A DNA stretch of 62,602 nucleotides from Desulfobotulus pelophilus (GTDB taxonomy: Bacteria > Desulfobacterota > Desulfobacteria > Desulfobacterales > ASO4-4): positions 1-62,602 of the forward strand of contig NZ_JAPFPW010000017.1 in NCBI RefSeq assembly GCF_026155325.1, read 5' to 3'. The position numbers and the translations under genes are program-made. This document shows, piece by piece, positions 838 to 9,082 of this stretch. Every line of letters begins with the position of its first letter. Within the stretch, counting starts at the first letter, position 1. The notes beneath the pieces are model-generated. The model saw nothing but the letters and a program-made list of their open reading frames with translations, was not told the DNA's origin and did not search any database.

Positions 838-2331
838 TTACAGTTGATATTTTTTTATTTTTTTATAAAGAAGGGGTCTCGATATTCCAAGCAGTTTGGC
901 TGCCTTGCTTTTATTCCCACCGCTTGTCTTCAGTGCCGAAGCAACAGCCTGTTTTTCTGTCTGCTTAACAAGCAGATCCAGCCCGAACCTTTCTTCGGAA
1001 TCGTCTTTTCTTGAGCCTGAACCGTAATCTGCATAGGAAATTAATCCGCGCTGTACGTCATTTTCACTGATCTGACTTTTTCGTACCATAATGAGCAAGC
1101 GTTCAAGGATATTTCGCAGTTCTCTGATATTGCCGGGCCAGTCATAGCTCTGCAGGGCAAGAACAGCTCCCTTGGAAAGGGTCTTATGAAAAATACCATG
1201 GGCTTTTGACAGCTCTTCCCATATTTTCCGGCTAAGAAATGGAATTTCTTCAGGAGTCTGTTTCAGCTCAGGAATAATGATGGGAATGACATTGAGCCGG
1301 TAGAACAGATCGGCCCTGAACCGGTTTTCCTCCACGAGTTTTTCCAGAGGCTGGTTGGTCGAGGCAATGATTCTCACATCCACAGGAATGTTTTTTTCAC
1401 TGCCAACGGGGGATATTTCCCTTTCCTGAATGGCTCTCAGCAGCTTGACCTGGGATGCTATGGGCATATCTCCAATCTCGTCAAGGAGAATGGTTCCCGT
1501 ATGGGCAAGTTCAAACTTACCTTTTTTCCCTCCTCTTCTCGCACCGGTAAACGCCCCTTCTTCATAGCCGAAAAGTTCGGATTCAATGAGGTTCTCCTGA
1601 ATGGCGCTGCAGTTGATCCGTATAAAAGGTTTGGAGCTGCGCGGGCTGAAGTTATGGATACTGTGGGCAAAAACTTCTTTCCCTGAACCGGAAGGGCCTC
1701 GTATCAATATGGTAGCATCGCTTGTGGCTGCCTGCATGGCTATTTCTTTCGCCATGGTCAGTTCTTCAGAAGAGCCGATAATGTCATCAAAGGTGTACTT
1801 GACATTCATGTTGACGGCCCTGATTTCCTTAAGGTTTTTAATTTTGGCATTCAGTTCCGCTATTTTTTCTGTGAGAAGCTTAACCTCTTCCACATATCGG
1901 AAACGTATCAGGCCCAGTGCGCCGACACAGTCACCGTTTTTGAGAATTGGAATTCTGGATACCACATAATGTTTTCCAGAAATGTCTTGAAAGCAGTCAT
2001 GCTGGGCAATACCGGACTCGGCTGCTTTATGGAGTTGCGTATTGTCCACAATTTTTGTGACATGCTGGCCGATGACCTTATGGGGACTGATATTGTGAAT
2101 TTCGCAGAAACTATCGTTTACATAGATAATTTGTCCCTCTGTATCCACGACCATGAGGCCGCATGCGCAATAATTGATAATGGTGCGCTGAAAATCGATA
2201 AGATTTTTTAAATCCGGGAAGGTCCCGATATTTTTTACTATCGCATAGGCTTCATTGGAAATGGCAAGGTTGCTGCCGCTCTGGTTATCGGAGCTTTTAA
2301 AGGCGCTTGTGGTATGATTGGCATCTTCCAT
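838..2331 (-). CDS. PAS-AAA+-Fis sigma-54-dependent transcriptional activator
   Basis: 497-residue enhancer-binding protein of the RocR/NtrC type. A PAS-like sensor domain lies at about residues 45-150, a short coiled coil at about 150-170, and the AAA+ domain at about 183-420. The AAA+ domain has Walker A GPSGSGKE (212-219), the sigma-54 contact loop GAFTGA (259-264) and Walker B ILLDEIGD (281-288). A Fis-type helix-turn-helix closes the protein (about 470-493). It is divergent from the hpdB operon, so it most likely activates that operon through sigma-54 RNA polymerase after sensing a small ligand through PAS. There is no receiver domain, so it is not phosphorelay-controlled in the usual way. 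The ligand (an arylacetate is the obvious candidate) is inference. Confidence 0.93.
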   Translation of the reverse strand: MEDANHTTSAFKSSDNQSGSNLAISNEAYAIVKNIGTFPDLKNLIDFQRTIINYCACGLMVVDTEGQIIYVNDSFCEIHNISPHKVIGQHVTKIVDNTQLHKAAESGIAQHDCFQDISGKHYVVSRIPILKNGDCVGALGLIRFRYVEEVKLLTEKIAELNAKIKNLKEIRAVNMNVKYTFDDIIGSSEELTMAKEIAMQAATSDATILIRGPSGSGKEVFAHSIHNFSPRSSKPFIRINCSAIQENLIESELFGYEEGAFTGARRGGKKGKFELAHTGTILLDEIGDMPIASQVKLLRAIQEREISPVGSEKNIPVDVRIIASTNQPLEKLVEENRFRADLFYRLNVIPIIIPELKQTPEEIPFLSRKIWEELSKAHGIFHKTLSKGAVLALQSYDWPGNIRELRNILERLLIMVRKSQISENDVQRGLISYADYGSGSRKDDSEERFGLDLLVKQTEKQAVASALKTSGGNKSKAAKLLGISRPLLYKKIKKYQL

Positions 2332-2948: not shown

Positions 2949-5663
2949 ATGGCTAAGACATTTAAAGAGGTCATGGCAGATGCCGGTATCTCCATGGGAT
3001 TTCAGGCGTGCGGTACGGCTCCTGAGGAGATGGTGGACCGGGAGGTGAAGCAGGAGCCCCATGAAAGGGTCAAAAAGCTGAAAAATATTTTCATGGAGAC
3101 CCTTTCTTCGGCAAACAATGAATTTTCATACTGGTATACCCGGGAGTACATGAAGCATGACAATGAAATTCCGGTTGTGAGAAGGGCCAAAGCACTGAAG
3201 TGTGCTTTCAGCCATCTTACCCCGGTTATTTATCCCGGAGAAAAGCTTGTCATGCACAAAGCTCATTTTTTCCGGGGCTCATTCCCCATGCCATGGCTTT
3301 CGGAAGGCTTTTATGTGGCCAAGGAAGATGAGCTGTATCAGGAAGCCATGAAAAGAGGTTCTGCCTCCGTGGATGAGCATTCCAAATTTGGCCAGGGCGG
3401 TGGCAACGTTGTGGCGAGTTTCGGAAATGTGGTTTCCATCGCAGGGAAATTTGGCATGAGAAAGGAAGAAATTCCTGTTCTTGTGGCACTGGCTAAAAAG
3501 TGGGTTGGCAAGTCTGTAGATGATCTGGGCCATAAGTACGAAATGATGGTCCCTGAGTATGAGATCAAAGAAAAAATCATGCGCAACATTGTATGCATGT
3601 TTGACTCAGGATTTACCCTTCCTCAGGGCCGTGAGGTCATCAATTATTACTACCCGCTGGAATATGGTTTTGACGGGATCATCAAAATAGCAAGGGAAAT
3701 GAAGGATACAGTAGCCGGGCGAGCCGACGGAGACGGTTTGATCGGCATGAACAGGCTGTACAACTATGAGGCGGTGATTCTTGCCATTGAAGGTGTACAG
3801 GCATGGATTCTGAATTATGCCAGAGAGGCCCGCAGGCTGGAAGCCATCGAAAAGGATACGGTTCAGCGGAAAGAATACGGCGAAATTGCCGATAGCCTTG
3901 AGTGGATTGCCCACCATCCTCCGCGGACATTCCGTGAGGCTTTTCAGCTGATTGAAACCGTGCACCTTTCGGTTCTGAATGAAGATGCCATTTCCGGTCT
4001 TTCTCCCGGTCGTATCGGTCAGATTCTGTATCCCTATTTTGAGCAGGATATGGAAGCGGGTCGCCTGACAGAAGATGAGGCGCTGGAACTGCTGGAGCTT
4101 GACAGGCTGGTCAAGACATCCATCGACTGCTTTGCTTCCGTGGGTGTTGTGGGAGGTGTTCTTTCCGGGAATACCTTTAACACCGTTTCCATAGGGGGGC
4201 TGGATAAATTCGGCAATTCTGCGGTAAACAGGCTTGAGTATCTCATTCTGAAAGCGGCGGCAAGCAATGCCATGCCCCAATCTACCCTCGCGCTCCTTTA
4301 TGATGAAAAGCTGCCGGAAGATTTTCTTATGCTCGCGGCAGAAGTCATTAAAACCGGGGCGGGCTATCCGGCCTTCATGAACAATGATGTTGCCGAACAC
4401 TTTCTGGTCTCCCATTACGGGCCTGAGGGCATGACCATTGAAGAATCCCGTGCCTGGGCCATTGGCGGCTGCCTTGAAACCTCTGCATGCTGCTGGAAGC
4501 CTCTTCACCTGAATGGCAGGGAATACTGGATTCCGGGTGGATGCGGTCAGCCAACGAGTGTGGGCGTTCACTTTATCTCCATGCCCAAGATACTGGAACT
4601 GACCCTCTATAACGGGGTGGATCAGCGTTCTGGCGAACAGGTTTTTGAACCCCATGGTGTGGAGCTGGATTCCTATGAAAAGATCTGGGATCAGTTCAAG
4701 GCATACTGGCAAAAAGCGGTAGAGGTTCTGACGCTTACCAACAATATTCAGCATGATGTCTGGCGAAAAAATAATATGGGCGTTTTCCACTCCGTACTGA
4801 AGCCGGACTGTCTTACCACGGGTCATCTGATCAATGAGCTGGGATATCGGTATAATGCAACCTTTAATGTGGAAAGCACGGGTACGGTCAATACGGTGAA
4901 CTCCCTGGCGGCCATTCGCCGACTCGTTTTTGATGAGAAGAAAACAGACCTTGAAACCCTGAAACAGGCAATGAAGGAAAACTTTGGCTTTAAAACCGCT
5001 GATGAGGTCAATTCCTTCTCCATCGCCGATCAGCAGAAAAGGGATGATGATAAAGGACGGTGGGACAAACTGCACTTTGCCTGCCTCCAGTCACCGAAAT
5101 ACGGTAATGACGAGCCCTATGCGGACAGTATTCTTCAGGACTGGGAATCCTTCTTCTGCGATGACTGCTACAATTATGAATCACTGTATGGCCATCCCCT
5201 TTATGCCTGCCAGATTTCCGTATCCACACACGGAGCCATGGGCTCTGCCACCATAGCCTCTGCAGACGGGCGCCTTTCCGGCACAACCTTTGCCGACGCC
5301 TCCATGTCCGCCTATCCGGGAACGGATAAAAACGGTCCCTTTGCCCTGATGACTTCGGCTGCCGTATGGGACCATGCTAAATCCCAGAACTCACAGCTCA
5401 ACATCAAGATTCATCCCACGGCCATCAAAGGCGAAGAGGGATCACGAAAACTGATTGATCTCACAAGGGCCTATATGCGGAAGGGTGGCTTCCATGTTCA
5501 GTATAATATTGTTGACTCAAAAATGCTGAAGGATGCTCAGGAACACCCTGAAAATTATCGTGATCTTATGGTCCGGGTCGCCGGATTCACGCAGTACTGG
5601 GTGGAAATCGGTAAATCGGTTCAGGACGAACTGATTGCCAGAACAGAATATGAAGGAGTGTAA
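2949..5663 (+). CDS. hpdB: 4-hydroxyphenylacetate decarboxylase, glycyl radical large subunit
   Basis: 904-residue glycyl radical enzyme; the family is about 900. The PFL-like barrel carries active-site GCLE (Cys508, Glu510), and the glycyl loop RVAGF has Gly879 near the C-terminus. From memory of the Clostridium scatologenes enzyme structure (Cys503, Glu505, Gly873, Arg223, Ser344, Phe405, His536, Glu637), a constant offset of +5 places Arg228, Ser349, Phe410, His541 and Glu642 at the same sites. The His/Glu pair that contacts the phenol hydroxyl is therefore kept. This favours decarboxylation of 4-hydroxyphenylacetate to p-cresol over phenylacetate or indoleacetate. Ribosome site GGGGAGG lies 6 nt before the ATG. 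The protein is cytosolic and oxygen-sensitive, and needs the activase at 7558. It starts the operon that includes the small subunit 2 bp downstream. Confidence 0.9.
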
Positions 5664-5665
5664 TC

Positions 5666-5926
5666 ATGACAATACCATACCGCGATACGCTTGAGTTTAT
5701 TCCCGTTGATGTGGATAAGGGCATTGACCGGCTGACGGGAAAAATGGTGAAGGCCGATGCCAGTGCGCCCGATGGCTATGGAATGGTTGCCAAGTGTAAA
5801 TTCTGTAAAAATTACACCGAGGAAAAAGACTATATAGGTATTTGTGAAGCAAGCGAGCAGACACCTAAGTTCATAGCCTACGGCGATATGTTGGCAGTAA
5901 CCTGTAATCAGTTCCAGAAAATTTAA
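5666..5926 (+). CDS. hpdC: HpdC-like small Fe-S subunit of the GRE decarboxylase, one cluster site only
   Basis: 86 residues, the usual HpdC length, starting 2 bp after hpdB with AAGGAG inside the hpdB end. In clostridial HpdC two [4Fe-4S] clusters are bound: an N-terminal one by His3, Cys6, Cys19 and Cys36, and a C-terminal one by four Cys (recalled from the family). Here the C-terminal set is present (Cys44, Cys47, Cys60, Cys80). The N-terminal set is absent: the protein starts MTIPYRDT, has Asp21 in the aligned GIDRL segment, and has no Cys or His before residue 44. The small subunit is thought to stabilise and regulate the large subunit in the heterooctamer. Loss of one cluster makes it resemble the single-cluster small subunits of benzylsuccinate-synthase-type enzymes in cofactor content. 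Confidence 0.82.
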   Translation: MTIPYRDTLEFIPVDVDKGIDRLTGKMVKADASAPDGYGMVAKCKFCKNYTEEKDYIGICEASEQTPKFIAYGDMLAVTCNQFQKI

Positions 5927-6141: not shown

Positions 6142-7449
6142 ATGAATAATTCTGAAATCAAGGGGTGGTCTGTTGTTGCGGCGTCCTGGCTGGCTTTGTT
6201 CTGTCTTTTCGGATACAGGGCGACATTCTCCATACTGAAAGTACCCATGAGCGCAGATATGGGATGGTCCCAGACGGAGGTGACTCTGGGCTATTCCATT
6301 CTGATGATGTTTTATGCCATTGCCGCATTTTTCTGCGGAATGCTGTTGGATAAATGGGGAACCAAGCTGGTTTACGTCATTGGCGCTGTTTTTGGTGCGG
6401 CCGGGTTTATCGTAACCAGCCATGTGCATTCGCTGTACGCTTATTATGCTTCCTATGGGGTTCTGGCGGGTGTTGCCACGGGTATGCTCTGGGTTTCATC
6501 CACCATTTCCGTTCGCAAGTGGTACGTAGGCAAGAACTACGCCAAGATGTTCGGCATTGCCTTTATGGGAGCGCCCATGTCCCAGGTCATCATGAGCCTT
6601 TTTGTCAAGGAATCCCTGGCAGGTGCCCAGGGCGATGCCTGGCGAAGTGCCATGCAGCTTCTGGGCTGGCTTACCCTTGCCTGTCTTTTGCTGGCGGCTG
6701 CCGTAGCCAAGAAAAATCCTGAAGATTACGGTCTGAAAGCTTTTGGGGAAGCGCCCGCATCGGATCAGGGGCAGCAAAGTGAATATGTATGGGGTGTGAA
6801 AGAGGCCTTTGCCTCCTATCCCATATGGGGGGCGATCCTTACCTTTCTGACCAGTATGCTCGCGGAATTTCTCGTATGGACCCAGGTTGTCAGCTACTGG
6901 AAAGATGACCTCGGCTACAACCTGAGTACGGCCACCAATCTTTATGTCGCCATAGGAATTGTTGGGATTTTTTCTATGCCCATCATGGGCATTATTGCAG
7001 ATAAGGTTGTGGCCGTATCCAGCTGCGAATCCCAGGGGCGGAAGCGAATGCTGATTTTCGGTCCGGCAGCGGGGGCTGTAGCCTGTGCATTTCTTTTGAT
7101 TCAGTCCGGAACGGGTCCTGCTTCCATTCTTCTGGGCGTTATTTCCTGTTTTATCTTTGCCGTGTACTGGGCCGTGGTTCCGGGAGGAGTTGTTGGGTAT
7201 ACCGGAGCTGTTTACGGAAGACAGACCCTGGGTAAGATATGGGGCCTTGCCACCTTGATCGTTATGGGGATTGGCCCTTTTCTTGGACCGTTGATAGGAG
7301 GTTTTTTAAAAGATTCTACCGGCTCCTATACCTATTCCATTCTCTTTGCTCTGGTAGCCTTCATTGTTTCCGCGTGCATCGCCTCCACCCTGCCCCTTAA
7401 GGCGGATAATGCCGCCATCCGGAGTATGGGTACCCATGCCGTTCATTGA
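6142..7449 (+). CDS. MFS transporter, OFA (oxalate/formate antiporter-like) family
   Basis: 435 residues with about 12 hydrophobic segments, in two halves of six. Typical MFS/OFA features include the loop GMLLDKWGTK after the second segment and a TGMLWVSS segment. A ribosome site AAGGAG precedes the ATG by about 9 nt. It sits inside the GRE operon between the structural genes and the activase, so it probably moves the decarboxylase substrate (an arylacetate), its product, or exchanges the two. OFA members act on monocarboxylates and dicarboxylates, which fits an arylacetate. Direction and substrate cannot be read from the sequence. Confidence 0.85.
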   Translation: MNNSEIKGWSVVAASWLALFCLFGYRATFSILKVPMSADMGWSQTEVTLGYSILMMFYAIAAFFCGMLLDKWGTKLVYVIGAVFGAAGFIVTSHVHSLYAYYASYGVLAGVATGMLWVSSTISVRKWYVGKNYAKMFGIAFMGAPMSQVIMSLFVKESLAGAQGDAWRSAMQLLGWLTLACLLLAAAVAKKNPEDYGLKAFGEAPASDQGQQSEYVWGVKEAFASYPIWGAILTFLTSMLAEFLVWTQVVSYWKDDLGYNLSTATNLYVAIGIVGIFSMPIMGIIADKVVAVSSCESQGRKRMLIFGPAAGAVACAFLLIQSGTGPASILLGVISCFIFAVYWAVVPGGVVGYTGAVYGRQTLGKIWGLATLIVMGIGPFLGPLIGGFLKDSTGSYTYSILFALVAFIVSACIASTLPLKADNAAIRSMGTHAVH

Positions 7450-7557: not shown

Positions 7558-8508
7558 ATGATGATGGGGAGCCGTGCTAATCAAGATGCCATGGGATTGA
7601 TTTTCGATGTGCAGGGCCATTCTGTTCATGATGGGCCTGGAACCAGAACAACTGTTTTTTTAAGTGGTTGCCCGCTCCATTGTGTGTGGTGCAGCAACCC
7701 TGAAGGTTTGTACCGAAGTCCGGTAGTCATGCATAAGCTGTCCAGATGCCAACGTTGTGGGAACTGCCTCCGATCCTGCCCTAACGGGGCCGTTCGTGTA
7801 GATAATAACATTTTACTGCATGACAGGGAGATCTGCGCGAAATGTACAAGCTATAACTGCCTGGATACCTGTTATCAGGAAGCCCTTGAATTGAGCGGCC
7901 GGTATTATTCCGTTGATGAGCTGATGAGAATTTTCCAGAGGGACCGCCAGTTCTGGGGATCAAAGGGGGGTGTAACCTTCAGTGGCGGCGAACCTCTGCT
8001 TCAGAAAGAATTTATCATTGAAATACTGAAGGCTTGCAAAAGCAGCTTCATTCATACCTGCGTGGAGACAACTTCCTGCATGGATACGGATTTTTTCATG
8101 GAAGCCATGCAGTATGTGGATTGGGCTTTCACGGATATCAAACATATGGATTCCGGGGAACACAGGCGGCTTACGGGAGTTGGGAATGAGCTGATCCTGA
8201 ATAATATCAGAAAACTTGCATCGGCAAGCTGGAATGGTGTGATGGTACCCCGCGTTCCCGTAATTCCGGGAGAAAATGATTCCCCGGAGAATATGGAGCG
8301 CACGGTTCGATTTATAAAGGACATCGGTCTCGATGTGGTCAATCTGCTTCCTTTCCATCGGCTTGGTGAATCCAAATACCGGCAGCTTGGGCTGACATAT
8401 GCCATGGCGGATCAGTCGCCACCGTCGGATGAGGCCATGCGGGCGTTGCAGGCAATGGCCGAGTCCTATGGGCTTTATTGCTTCATCGGCTGGGAAACCC
8501 CGTTCTAA
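7558..8508 (+). CDS. hpdA: glycyl radical enzyme activase (radical SAM, two ferredoxin clusters)
   Basis: 316 residues, the length I recall for clostridial HpdA. The radical-SAM cluster motif CPLHCVWC gives Cys38, Cys42 and Cys45. A ferredoxin-like insert carries two Cys sets: C64-x2-C-x2-C-x3-C74 and C93-x2-C-x4-C-x3-C105. The GGVTFSGGEPL motif (137-147) is the SAM-contacting glycine-rich strand. The enzyme abstracts hydrogen from Gly879 of the large subunit using SAM. AAAGGAG lies about 10 nt before a run of three ATG codons; the first is taken as start. Its place downstream of the MFS gene and a strong hairpin suggests lower expression than hpdBC. Confidence 0.92.
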   Translation: MMMGSRANQDAMGLIFDVQGHSVHDGPGTRTTVFLSGCPLHCVWCSNPEGLYRSPVVMHKLSRCQRCGNCLRSCPNGAVRVDNNILLHDREICAKCTSYNCLDTCYQEALELSGRYYSVDELMRIFQRDRQFWGSKGGVTFSGGEPLLQKEFIIEILKACKSSFIHTCVETTSCMDTDFFMEAMQYVDWAFTDIKHMDSGEHRRLTGVGNELILNNIRKLASASWNGVMVPRVPVIPGENDSPENMERTVRFIKDIGLDVVNLLPFHRLGESKYRQLGLTYAMADQSPPSDEAMRALQAMAESYGLYCFIGWETPF

Positions 8509-8536
8509 TCTTTCCACCCGAATGAAGGAGAAGCCA

Positions 8537-9082
8537 ATGATATCACAGCGTGATCAGCTTATAGAAGAGATTATTCGTATAGAAATGGATATGTTCCGTA
8601 ATGTTAACTCAACCATCACCTCGCCCTGTCAGGAGTATCTGAAAACCTTCCGGGCCATGAGGTGGATGGCCCATTCGGTTTCTCCTGATGATATTCTGTT
8701 CTCCTGTTTCCATGATTTACAGGAAGGAGTTACGGAGGGACGGAATTTCATGCGGGAAAAATATGCGCGGATGGAAGGTCAGATTCCGCCCCTGAAAACC
8801 AGTGTTCTGATAGATGAGATTGTGGATGCGGAATGCGGCTGGATGGAAGATGTGTCCAGCCATTATCCCGATGTGTTTCAGCCCGGTGGCGATGGGTTCA
8901 GAATCTATCTTTCCTGTGAGCTGGAAACTTTTTCCGACAGGACCATTGAAAAAATACACCATTTTACCATGGCGGCTAAAAAGGCAGGCAGGAATCTTGT
9001 TGAGGAACGTTATCGGAATCTTTTTGGTAAGCTTGGTATGCCTTTCAGAAAGAAGGGAGGAAATAGGATGCCTGCAGAGTGA
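8537..9082 (+). CDS. DUF4125 family protein in the GRE operon
   Basis: 181 residues. The ATG at 8537 has AAGGAG 6 nt upstream and follows the activase stop by 28 nt; longer in-frame starts lie inside the activase gene and are rejected. The N-terminal block (EMDMFRNVN, PCQEYLKTFRAMR) and the EGRNFMREKYARM segment match what I remember of DUF4125. There is no signal peptide or membrane segment. Four Cys (31, 57, 100, 127) and several conserved-looking Glu/Tyr residues are present. The function is unknown; being the last gene of a GRE operon suggests a chaperone, repair or regulatory role for the radical enzyme (inference). Confidence 0.75.
   Translation: MISQRDQLIEEIIRIEMDMFRNVNSTITSPCQEYLKTFRAMRWMAHSVSPDDILFSCFHDLQEGVTEGRNFMREKYARMEGQIPPLKTSVLIDEIVDAECGWMEDVSSHYPDVFQPGGDGFRIYLSCELETFSDRTIEKIHHFTMAAKKAGRNLVEERYRNLFGKLGMPFRKKGGNRMPAE

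What the first reader, a model, noticed from the sequence alone, without database searches (positions are those of the whole stretch)
5666..5926. HpdC-type subunit reduced to one Fe-S cluster
The large subunit keeps the residues recalled for 4-hydroxyphenylacetate decarboxylase, yet the small subunit lacks all N-terminal cluster ligands (no His or Cys before Cys44) and keeps only Cys44, Cys47, Cys60 and Cys80. This may define a distinct subgroup of arylacetate decarboxylases, with different regulation or substrate.
Basis: partly seen in the sequence, partly recalled or inferred. Interest (0 to 1): 0.78.

Follow-up and report, generated by a model that had tools for sequence, protein, structure and literature searches.

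The report
One-cluster 4-hydroxyphenylacetate decarboxylase small subunit
The small helper protein of a cresol-making bacterial enzyme appears to have lost one of its two iron-sulfur clusters while keeping its shape; related enzymes seem to have lost the same cluster at least twice more, so nature may already have run the experiment that would show what this unexplained cluster is for.

Summary
Window 5666-5926 encodes an 86-residue HpdC with no His or Cys before Cys44; Cys44, 47, 60 and 80 are its only cysteines, and an in-frame stop (5651-5653) rules out a longer N-terminus. It sits in an hpdB-hpdC-MFS-hpdA gene cluster whose large subunit keeps all nine 4-hydroxyphenylacetate decarboxylase (HPAD) positions I checked. 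Among 30 distinct HpdB/HpdC pairs, 19 HpdC keep all four N-terminal ligands (His is Cys in one) and 11 have lost three or four; the four C-terminal cysteines are present in 30 of 30. On HpdB trees the losses fall in three separate places: the window clade (six sequences), four sequences and one further sequence from the order of Collinsella; a single origin is rejected. Cys19 became Asp in all three. The window clade's N-terminal lobe is as conserved as the C lobe and predicted to fold like the crystal HpdC. Best reading: an ordinary HPAD with one [4Fe-4S] cluster per heterodimer, the N-terminal HiPIP-like lobe kept as a cluster-free scaffold. "Different substrate" is not supported; "different regulation" is untested. 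Recent papers call the small subunit's function unknown, so these natural knock-outs are useful. No metal was measured; the claim rests on sequence.

The parts
5666..5926 (+). hpdC-like small subunit, 86 aa; HiPIP-like N lobe without cluster ligands, C lobe with CxxC-x12-C-x19-C
   Evidence: NF033716 72.3 bits (cut-off 50); PF18671 31.7 (25) and PF18524 37.0 (28.1); model matches 2y8n_B over nearly its whole length
5678..5680 (+). codon of Tyr5, at the column of ligand His3
   Evidence: alignment column table
5687..5689 (+). codon of Thr8, at the column of ligand Cys6
5726..5728 (+). codon of Asp21, at the column of ligand Cys19
5768..5770 (+). codon of Pro35, at the column of ligand Cys36
5795..5905 (+). 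C-terminal cluster ligands Cys44 (5795), Cys47 (5804), Cys60 (5843), Cys80 (5903)
   Evidence: present in 30 of 30 HpdC; positions
2949..5663 (+). hpdB, 904-aa glycyl radical large subunit
   Evidence: NF033715 1580 bits (cut-off 1150); 2y8n_A E 1.6e-301; catalytic residues
6142..7449 (+). MFS transporter between hpdC and hpdA, putative arylacetate uptake
   Evidence: PF07690; best NCBIfam match an L-lactate MFS model, 138 bits, below its cut-off of 320; same position in L041, L042, L043, L001, L003
7558..8508 (+). hpdA, radical SAM activase with both auxiliary 4-Cys sets
   Evidence: NF033717 396.7 bits (cut-off 420, so just under); cysteines
838..2331 (-). divergent PAS/AAA+/Fis sigma54-dependent regulator
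8525..9082 (+). DUF4125 protein, possibly co-transcribed; role unknown
   Evidence: PF13526 E 1.6e-38; also beside hpdA in L041

Best explanation
A working 4-hydroxyphenylacetate decarboxylase (p-cresol-forming) whose HpdC subunit carries one [4Fe-4S] cluster instead of two. HpdA puts the radical on the glycine of HpdB, and HpdB decarboxylates 4-hydroxyphenylacetate in the usual way through its Cys/Glu1/Glu2 site. HpdC stays bound as a two-lobed HiPIP-like cap: the C-terminal lobe holds the remaining cluster, the N-terminal lobe keeps its fold and probably its HpdB contact but holds no cluster, its ligand positions filled by Tyr, Thr, Asp and Pro. The N-terminal cluster is therefore dispensable for the complex and was discarded at least three times in the sampled family. 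SHOWN here: ligand loss, its conservation, three separate losses, intact C-terminal ligands, intact HpdB and HpdA residues, predicted fold. INFERRED: absence of the metal, activity, substrate, one-cluster stoichiometry, and that the lobe is structural.
For: No Cys or His in the N lobe in all six clade members. 19 of 30 HpdC keep all four ligands (His replaced by Cys in one, L006) and 11 of 30 lack three or four, with none lacking one or two: the ligands come and go as a set. C-terminal cysteines 30 of 30. All nine HPAD active-site positions are unchanged in the 10 ligand-poor rows where all can be read, the window among them; the truncated L009 agrees at its three readable positions. HpdA keeps both auxiliary cysteine sets in the six clade loci. 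N lobe 44-86% identical within the clade, C lobe 44-77%. Omega of the N lobe 0.08-0.37 in the 10 of 15 clade pairs where it could be computed. Model pLDDT 93.8 and Z 12.9, 1.5 A over 82 residues to 2y8n_B, as for the two-cluster control L002. Three changes in both careful trees; single origin rejected, p-AU 1.9e-57.
Against: No metal or activity data. The identity of the N-terminal ligands (His3, Cys6, Cys19, Cys36) is recalled from the crystal-structure paper, which is not held; one search shows Cys6, Cys19 and Cys36 in 2y8n_B, and the conservation in 19 relatives agrees. The structure model used an alignment that includes ligand-complete relatives, so it leans towards their fold. dS in the clade is high: 1.0 or more in the computable N-lobe pairs and saturated in 13 of 15 C-lobe pairs, so omega is rough. 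In L031 the N lobe gives omega 0.74-0.76 against its neighbours, 0.52 between those neighbours, as if relaxed. HpdC as a whole is reported as essential for activity (title of Andrei 2004 in the reference list of PMC12358834), which warns against calling any part of it idle. The window HpdA falls just under its family cut-off.
Confidence: 0.85

Rival explanations
1. The N-terminal lobe still holds a cluster or another metal, using Asp21, Tyr5 or residues lent by HpdB.
For: Cys19 is replaced by Asp, a possible iron ligand, in all three losses. HpdB of the window clade has three His absent or rare elsewhere (window residues H38, H144, H626). Group b keeps Cys at the Cys6 column plus an early Cys and three His.
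Against: In the window clade there is no Cys or His at all before the C lobe, and Thr, Pro and (in L020) Ala cannot stand in for thiolates. The place of the three HpdB His relative to HpdC is unknown, and whether three such columns exceed drift was not tested.
Confidence: 0.08
2. The clade decarboxylates a different arylacetate, and the cluster loss goes with a new substrate.
For: The clade is a distinct HpdB branch. A relative with a truly changed active site exists (L027), so the family can change substrate.
Against: Glu637 (Glu2, which IAD lacks; PMC6181972 passages), Leu400, His536 and the other positions are unchanged. The clearly changed enzyme L027 has a ligand-complete HpdC, so the two traits do not go together in this sample.
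Confidence: 0.05
3. Artefact or decaying gene: wrong start, frameshift, or a subunit on its way out.
For: Many relatives come from draft or metagenome assemblies; L031 shows a fast N lobe.
Against: Upstream stop; nearly the same four replacements in six sequences from five genomes; conserved length, N lobe and C-terminal ligands; an hpdC beside each of the 30 distinct hpdB loci.
Confidence: 0.02

Closest known systems
HpdC (HPAD gamma) of the PDB entries 2Y8N/2YAJ (Clostridium scatologenes)
   Same: Same two-lobe fold (Z 12.9, 1.5 A over 82 residues), gene next to hpdB, same C-terminal four cysteines.
   Different: The crystal protein binds two [4Fe-4S] clusters (stated for HPAD in PMC12358834, passages); the window lacks all four N-terminal ligands. 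27-29% identity in structural alignments.
BSS gamma and beta, MASS gamma and beta (fumarate-adding glycyl radical enzymes)
   Same: Small HiPIP-like accessory subunits with one [4Fe-4S] cluster (PMC12358834 and PMC12590467 passages); the window's C lobe aligns with 9o8u_C, by its length MASS gamma (Z 5.9), and with BSS chain 9pzj_B (Z 4.6).
   Different: In those rows only the window's C lobe is matched; the window keeps a second, cluster-free lobe and partners an HPAD large subunit.
Indoleacetate decarboxylase (IAD)
   Same: Sister glycyl radical arylacetate decarboxylase (PMC6181972, passages).
   Different: No small subunit in the IAD gene neighbourhoods shown there, and no Glu2 (PMC6181972); the IAD model NF033718 gives 685 bits against a cut-off of 1100 for the window HpdB.

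Membership tests
4-hydroxyphenylacetate decarboxylase, large subunit HpdB | NCBIfam equivalog NF033715 above its cut-off | tested here: met
   1580 bits against 1150
4-hydroxyphenylacetate decarboxylase, large subunit HpdB | Radical Gly873, thiyl Cys503, Glu505 (Glu1), Glu637 (Glu2), Leu400; also F214, S344, F405, H536 (C. scatologenes numbering, in part recalled; the last four recalled altogether) | tested here: met
   all nine present; the radical Gly and Cys, Glu1, Glu2, Leu400 and Glu637 are named in PMC6181972 passages
4-hydroxyphenylacetate decarboxylase, large subunit HpdB | Decarboxylates 4-hydroxyphenylacetate to p-cresol | not testable with these tools
   needs the protein
HpdC small subunit | NCBIfam equivalog NF033716 above its cut-off and gene next to hpdB | tested here: met
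   72.3 bits against 50; two bases lie between the hpdB stop codon and the ATG
HpdC small subunit | C-terminal HiPIP-like [4Fe-4S] site, four Cys | tested here: met
   C44, C47, C60, C80; PF18524
HpdC small subunit, two-cluster type | N-terminal [4Fe-4S] site: His3, Cys6, Cys19, Cys36 | tested here: not met
   Tyr, Thr, Asp, Pro; hence filed as a one-cluster variant, not as a two-cluster HpdC
HpdC small subunit | Whole-chain fold of 2y8n_B | tested here: met
   predicted model only: Z 12.9, 1.5 A, 82 residues
HpdA activase | NCBIfam equivalog NF033717 above its cut-off; ferredoxin-like insert with two 4-Cys sets | tested here: inconclusive
   396.7 bits against 420, best hit though under cut-off; both 4-Cys sets present

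The most novel reading that the evidence does not exclude
The N-terminal HpdC cluster is an optional redox or radical-control element (for example a sink that returns the glycyl radical to glycine, or a redox-driven assembly switch) that lineages discard when it is no longer useful, with selected replacement of the ligands (Cys19 to Asp three times, Cys36 to Pro twice, His3 to Tyr twice). One-cluster HPADs would then differ in radical lifetime or assembly, not in chemistry.
Probability: 0.3. Interest if true: 0.72.

Novelty: new variant of a known kind. Interest (0 to 1): 0.56.

Why it matters
Recent papers still call the function of HPAD's small subunit unknown or unclear (PMC12358834, PMC11194802; passages). 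Three natural lineages without one of its two clusters, each with a two-cluster relative beside it on the tree, give pairs to test what that cluster does: stability, assembly or control of the glycyl radical. It also warns that profile annotation (NCBIfam, Pfam) calls these proteins ordinary HpdC, so cofactor content should not be copied from the family name.

Tried and rejected
Upstream start supplying ligands: excluded by an in-frame stop. One origin of the loss: rejected, p-AU 1.9e-57 for all 11 rows; pairs of loss groups also rejected, p-AU 1.95e-66 (a+b), 4.4e-4 (a+c), 2.7e-6 (b+c) after leaving out two long rows (L037, L027) and the truncated L009 (the pairs were named after the first tree was seen). 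Compensating change in HpdB: a scan for residues shared by all three loss groups and in at most 6 two-cluster rows gave three unremarkable columns (window residues E238, I356, H520, whose printed numbers run 11 higher because its rows start before the ATG). A sigma54 promoter for the operon: 12 matches in the window against 10.3 expected by shuffling, none in the gap 2332-2948. Plasmid-borne copies of P0002: no match in PLSDB. The heterodimer could not be predicted with the tool at hand (single chains). Tannerella forsythia HpdC, a characterised HPAD, was not examined: the sample of the class of L006 (262 genomes) gave only the known L006 genome. In the passages and listings I saw from eight searches no HpdC without the N-terminal ligands is described; the three papers most likely to tell (Martins 2011, Yu 2006, Selvaraj 2016) are not held, so this is not proof that none is in print.

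Limits of the genome searches: looked at samples drawn from larger groups; the number of first-look candidates scored per genome was small (at most two in the rows shown, up to five, three); with the strict threshold the 14 control genomes gave no match, and itself says that nothing rang anywhere, so it does not show absence.

Rows left out of the 30-row counts: the window's own copies L012 and L017, duplicates L019 (of L008), L026 (of L004), L036 (of L007), L039 (of L006), L040 (of L001), re-fetched stretches L041-L046, and the two other glycyl radical enzymes of the genome (L013, L014; their second pieces L015, L016), of which L013 and L014 served as outgroup only. L030 was also left out of alignments A1 and A2 because its HpdC equals that of L029.

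Full report
WHAT IS THERE. The window holds, on the + strand, hpdB (2949-5663), hpdC (5666-5926), an MFS transporter (6142-7449), hpdA (7558-8508) and a DUF4125 gene (8525-9082), with a sigma54-dependent regulator divergently upstream (838-2331, -). HpdB scores 1580 bits on NCBIfam's HPAD large-subunit model (cut-off 1150), HpdC 72.3 on the small-subunit model (cut-off 50), HpdA 396.7 on the activase model, slightly under its cut-off of 420 though it is the best hit. The search of the window's genome found one place over the large-subunit cut-off and two other glycyl-radical-enzyme loci far below it. Two other genomes of its genus gave no HpdC match.

THE OBSERVATION. HpdC reads MTIPYRDTLEFIPVDVDKGIDRLTGKMVKADASAPDGYGMVAKCKFCKNYTEEKDYIGICEASEQTPKFIAYGDMLAVTCNQFQKI. 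It has four cysteines, C44, C47, C60, C80, and no histidine. An in-frame stop lies at 5651-5653, with four codons between it and the ATG. In an alignment of 30 HpdC the four N-terminal ligand columns (His3, Cys6, Cys19, Cys36 of the C. scatologenes protein; the list is recalled, and one search shows the three cysteines in 2y8n_B) hold Tyr5, Thr8, Asp21 and Pro35 in the window.

RELATIVES. One scan of genome contigs gave 11 loci with HpdB relatives. Whole-genome searches with the large-subunit model at E <= 1e-290 gave matches in 5 of 389 genomes of the window's class, the window's own included, 3 of 86 of one family (all seen before), 5 of 391 of the class of L004, one seen before, 0 of 4 of the order of L009 (L009's own hpdB is cut by the contig end), 1 of 36 of another family (seen), 10 of 149 of the order of L007, one seen before, 1 of 262 of the class of L006 (seen) and 1 of 264 of the class of L001 (seen). 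A small-subunit search over 395 genomes drawn from the phylum matched only the window's genome. After removing duplicates there are 30 distinct hpdB loci, and each had an hpdC next to it.

LIGAND PATTERN. 19 of 30 HpdC keep all four N-terminal ligands (His is Cys in L006); 11 of 30 have lost three or four. None has lost just one or two, so the set behaves as a unit. The four C-terminal cysteines are present in 30 of 30. The ligand-poor ones are: (a) window, L008, L022, L018, L020, L009, with no Cys or His at all before the C lobe; (b) L028, L029, L030, L032, which keep Cys at the Cys6 column, an early Cys and three His, so another metal there is not excluded; (c) L031, with Asn, Ser, Asp, Pro and one His and one Cys elsewhere in the lobe. 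Asp replaces Cys19 in all three groups; Pro replaces Cys36 in a and c (Ala or Asp in b); Tyr replaces His3 in a and b.

THREE SEPARATE LOSSES. A careful maximum-likelihood tree of the 30 HpdB (HpdC not used) places a, b and c apart, each beside ligand-complete relatives: a is sister to L002 (node 99/99), b lies with L007, L033 and L034 (100/100), c is sister to L038 (99/97). The label needs three changes, forced by starred branches, and 0 of 200 bootstrap trees need only one; holding all 11 together is rejected (p-AU 1.9e-57). In that tree group a including L009 has 94/91. A tree without two long rows and the truncated L009 gives the same three changes, with group a at 100/100. A tree with an outgroup puts a two-cluster row, L037, deepest, on a long branch whose place is unsure. 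The likeliest history is three losses from a two-cluster ancestor; three changes could also be one gain and two losses, which I think unlikely because ligand-complete HpdC are spread over the whole tree. Group c is one sequence from one genome. Loss follows the HpdB clade and not simply the taxon: G216 (L021), in the same order as the window, has a two-cluster HpdC on another branch.

CATALYSIS. Nine active-site positions (F214, S344, L400, F405, C503, E505, H536, E637, G873, C. scatologenes numbering) are unchanged in the window and in the other ligand-poor rows (L009 readable at three). Of the 19 ligand-complete rows 17 also keep all nine; L037 has Ala at F214 and L027 is changed at seven. 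The paper on indoleacetate decarboxylase names Glu1 and Glu2, gives Leu616 in IAD for Glu637 and Ala396 for Leu400, and says that the small subunit is needed for active HPAD and absent beside IAD (PMC6181972, passages). So a 4-hydroxyphenylacetate decarboxylase is the plain expectation. The activase keeps both auxiliary four-cysteine sets in the six clade loci; an HPAD activase without its auxiliary clusters still activated the enzyme but the radical did not last, as told in PMC10239695 (passages).

THE CLUSTER-FREE LOBE IS KEPT. Within group a the N lobe is 44-86% identical between pairs, the C lobe 44-77%. Asp15 and Gly19 of the N lobe are invariant in the 29 aligned HpdC, Lys18 nearly so. 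In group a omega of the N lobe is 0.08-0.37 in the 10 of 15 pairs where it could be computed, with dS of 1.0 or more; for the C lobe only two pairs could be computed (0.09 and 0.11); the closest pair, L008 and L022, gives 0.08 and 0.11. In group b the N lobe gives 0.01-0.04 within the group. L031 against its neighbours gives 0.74-0.76 for the N lobe, higher than 0.52 between those neighbours, a hint of relaxation after a recent loss (all). AlphaFold2 predicts the window HpdC with mean pLDDT 93.8, 91-97 over the first 40 residues; it superposes on 2y8n_B over 82 residues at 1.5 A, Z 12.9, the same as the ligand-complete control L002 (83 residues, 1.5 A, Z 12.9). HiPIP entries align with the window's N lobe only weakly (three rows, Z 2.5-2.7) and with the control's N lobe better (ten rows, Z 3.6-4.6), so the N lobe may have drifted from the HiPIP pattern without losing the fold (such low Z values are rough). 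The alignment behind the model included ligand-complete relatives, so this is support, not proof.

MECHANISM. Shown: ligand loss as a set, three times, with the rest of the system intact. Inferred: the window's HPAD has one [4Fe-4S] cluster per heterodimer; the N lobe serves as a structural cap on HpdB; the lost cluster is not needed for catalysis. What the cluster does where it is kept is open: recent papers call the small subunit's function unknown or unclear apart from soluble expression, or suppose a structural role (PMC12358834, PMC11194802, PMC12590467; passages), although an older paper says in its title that HpdC is essential for activity (Andrei 2004, seen only in a reference list). 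For benzylsuccinate synthase a cluster has been proposed, without proof, as a sink that quenches the radical (PMC12590467, passages). The MFS gene fits uptake of 4-hydroxyphenylacetate, as hypothesised for Olsenella (PMC6181972, passages). A proton gradient from decarboxylation has been proposed as the benefit, and the physiological role is called unknown (PMC13285125, passages).

NOVELTY. Filed as a new variant of a known kind: HpdC by profile, fold and gene order, but the N-terminal cluster, a feature of the characterised subunit, was tested by its ligands and is not met. In the passages and listings that I saw from the searches no such variant is described; key subscription papers are not held.

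Noticed in passing
L047:7236-14428 (G893:C16; hpdB copy also in L027): An HpdB relative that scores over the HPAD cut-off (1313 vs 1150) but is changed at seven of nine active-site positions (Asp at F214, Cys at S344, Asn at L400, Tyr at F405, Ala at E505, Leu at H536, Ile at E637), with thiyl Cys and radical Gly kept and a ligand-complete HpdC. Nearby genes: an ABC transporter ATPase with an NMT1-like binding protein, HAD phosphatase, APH-like kinase, URO-D/MtaA-type methyltransferase and an HpdA-type activase (437 vs 420 bits). Probably a glycyl radical enzyme with another substrate that pipelines would misname.
   Followed up: partly
window 8525-9082; L041:13532-14092; L007:12343-12957 (weak): A DUF4125 gene directly after hpdA in the window and in G213, and a weak match further from hpdB in L007; possibly functionally tied to HPAD.
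   Followed up: no
L043 and L044 (G115 contigs 41 and 77): One genome with two HPAD operons, both with ligand-free HpdC; one has the MFS gene between hpdC and hpdA, the other does not.
   Followed up: no
L006:8698-8949: An HpdC whose N-terminal site has Cys in place of the His ligand, an all-cysteine version of the His-ligated cluster.
   Followed up: no
L005:2257-6186: A complete hpdBCA set on a contig assigned to a Methanomicrobiales MAG: archaeal HPAD or contamination.
   Followed up: no
L046:1378-2114: The hpdA match of the Lake Pavin MAG (L009's contig) is split over two overlapping frames, a likely assembly error or broken gene.
   Followed up: no
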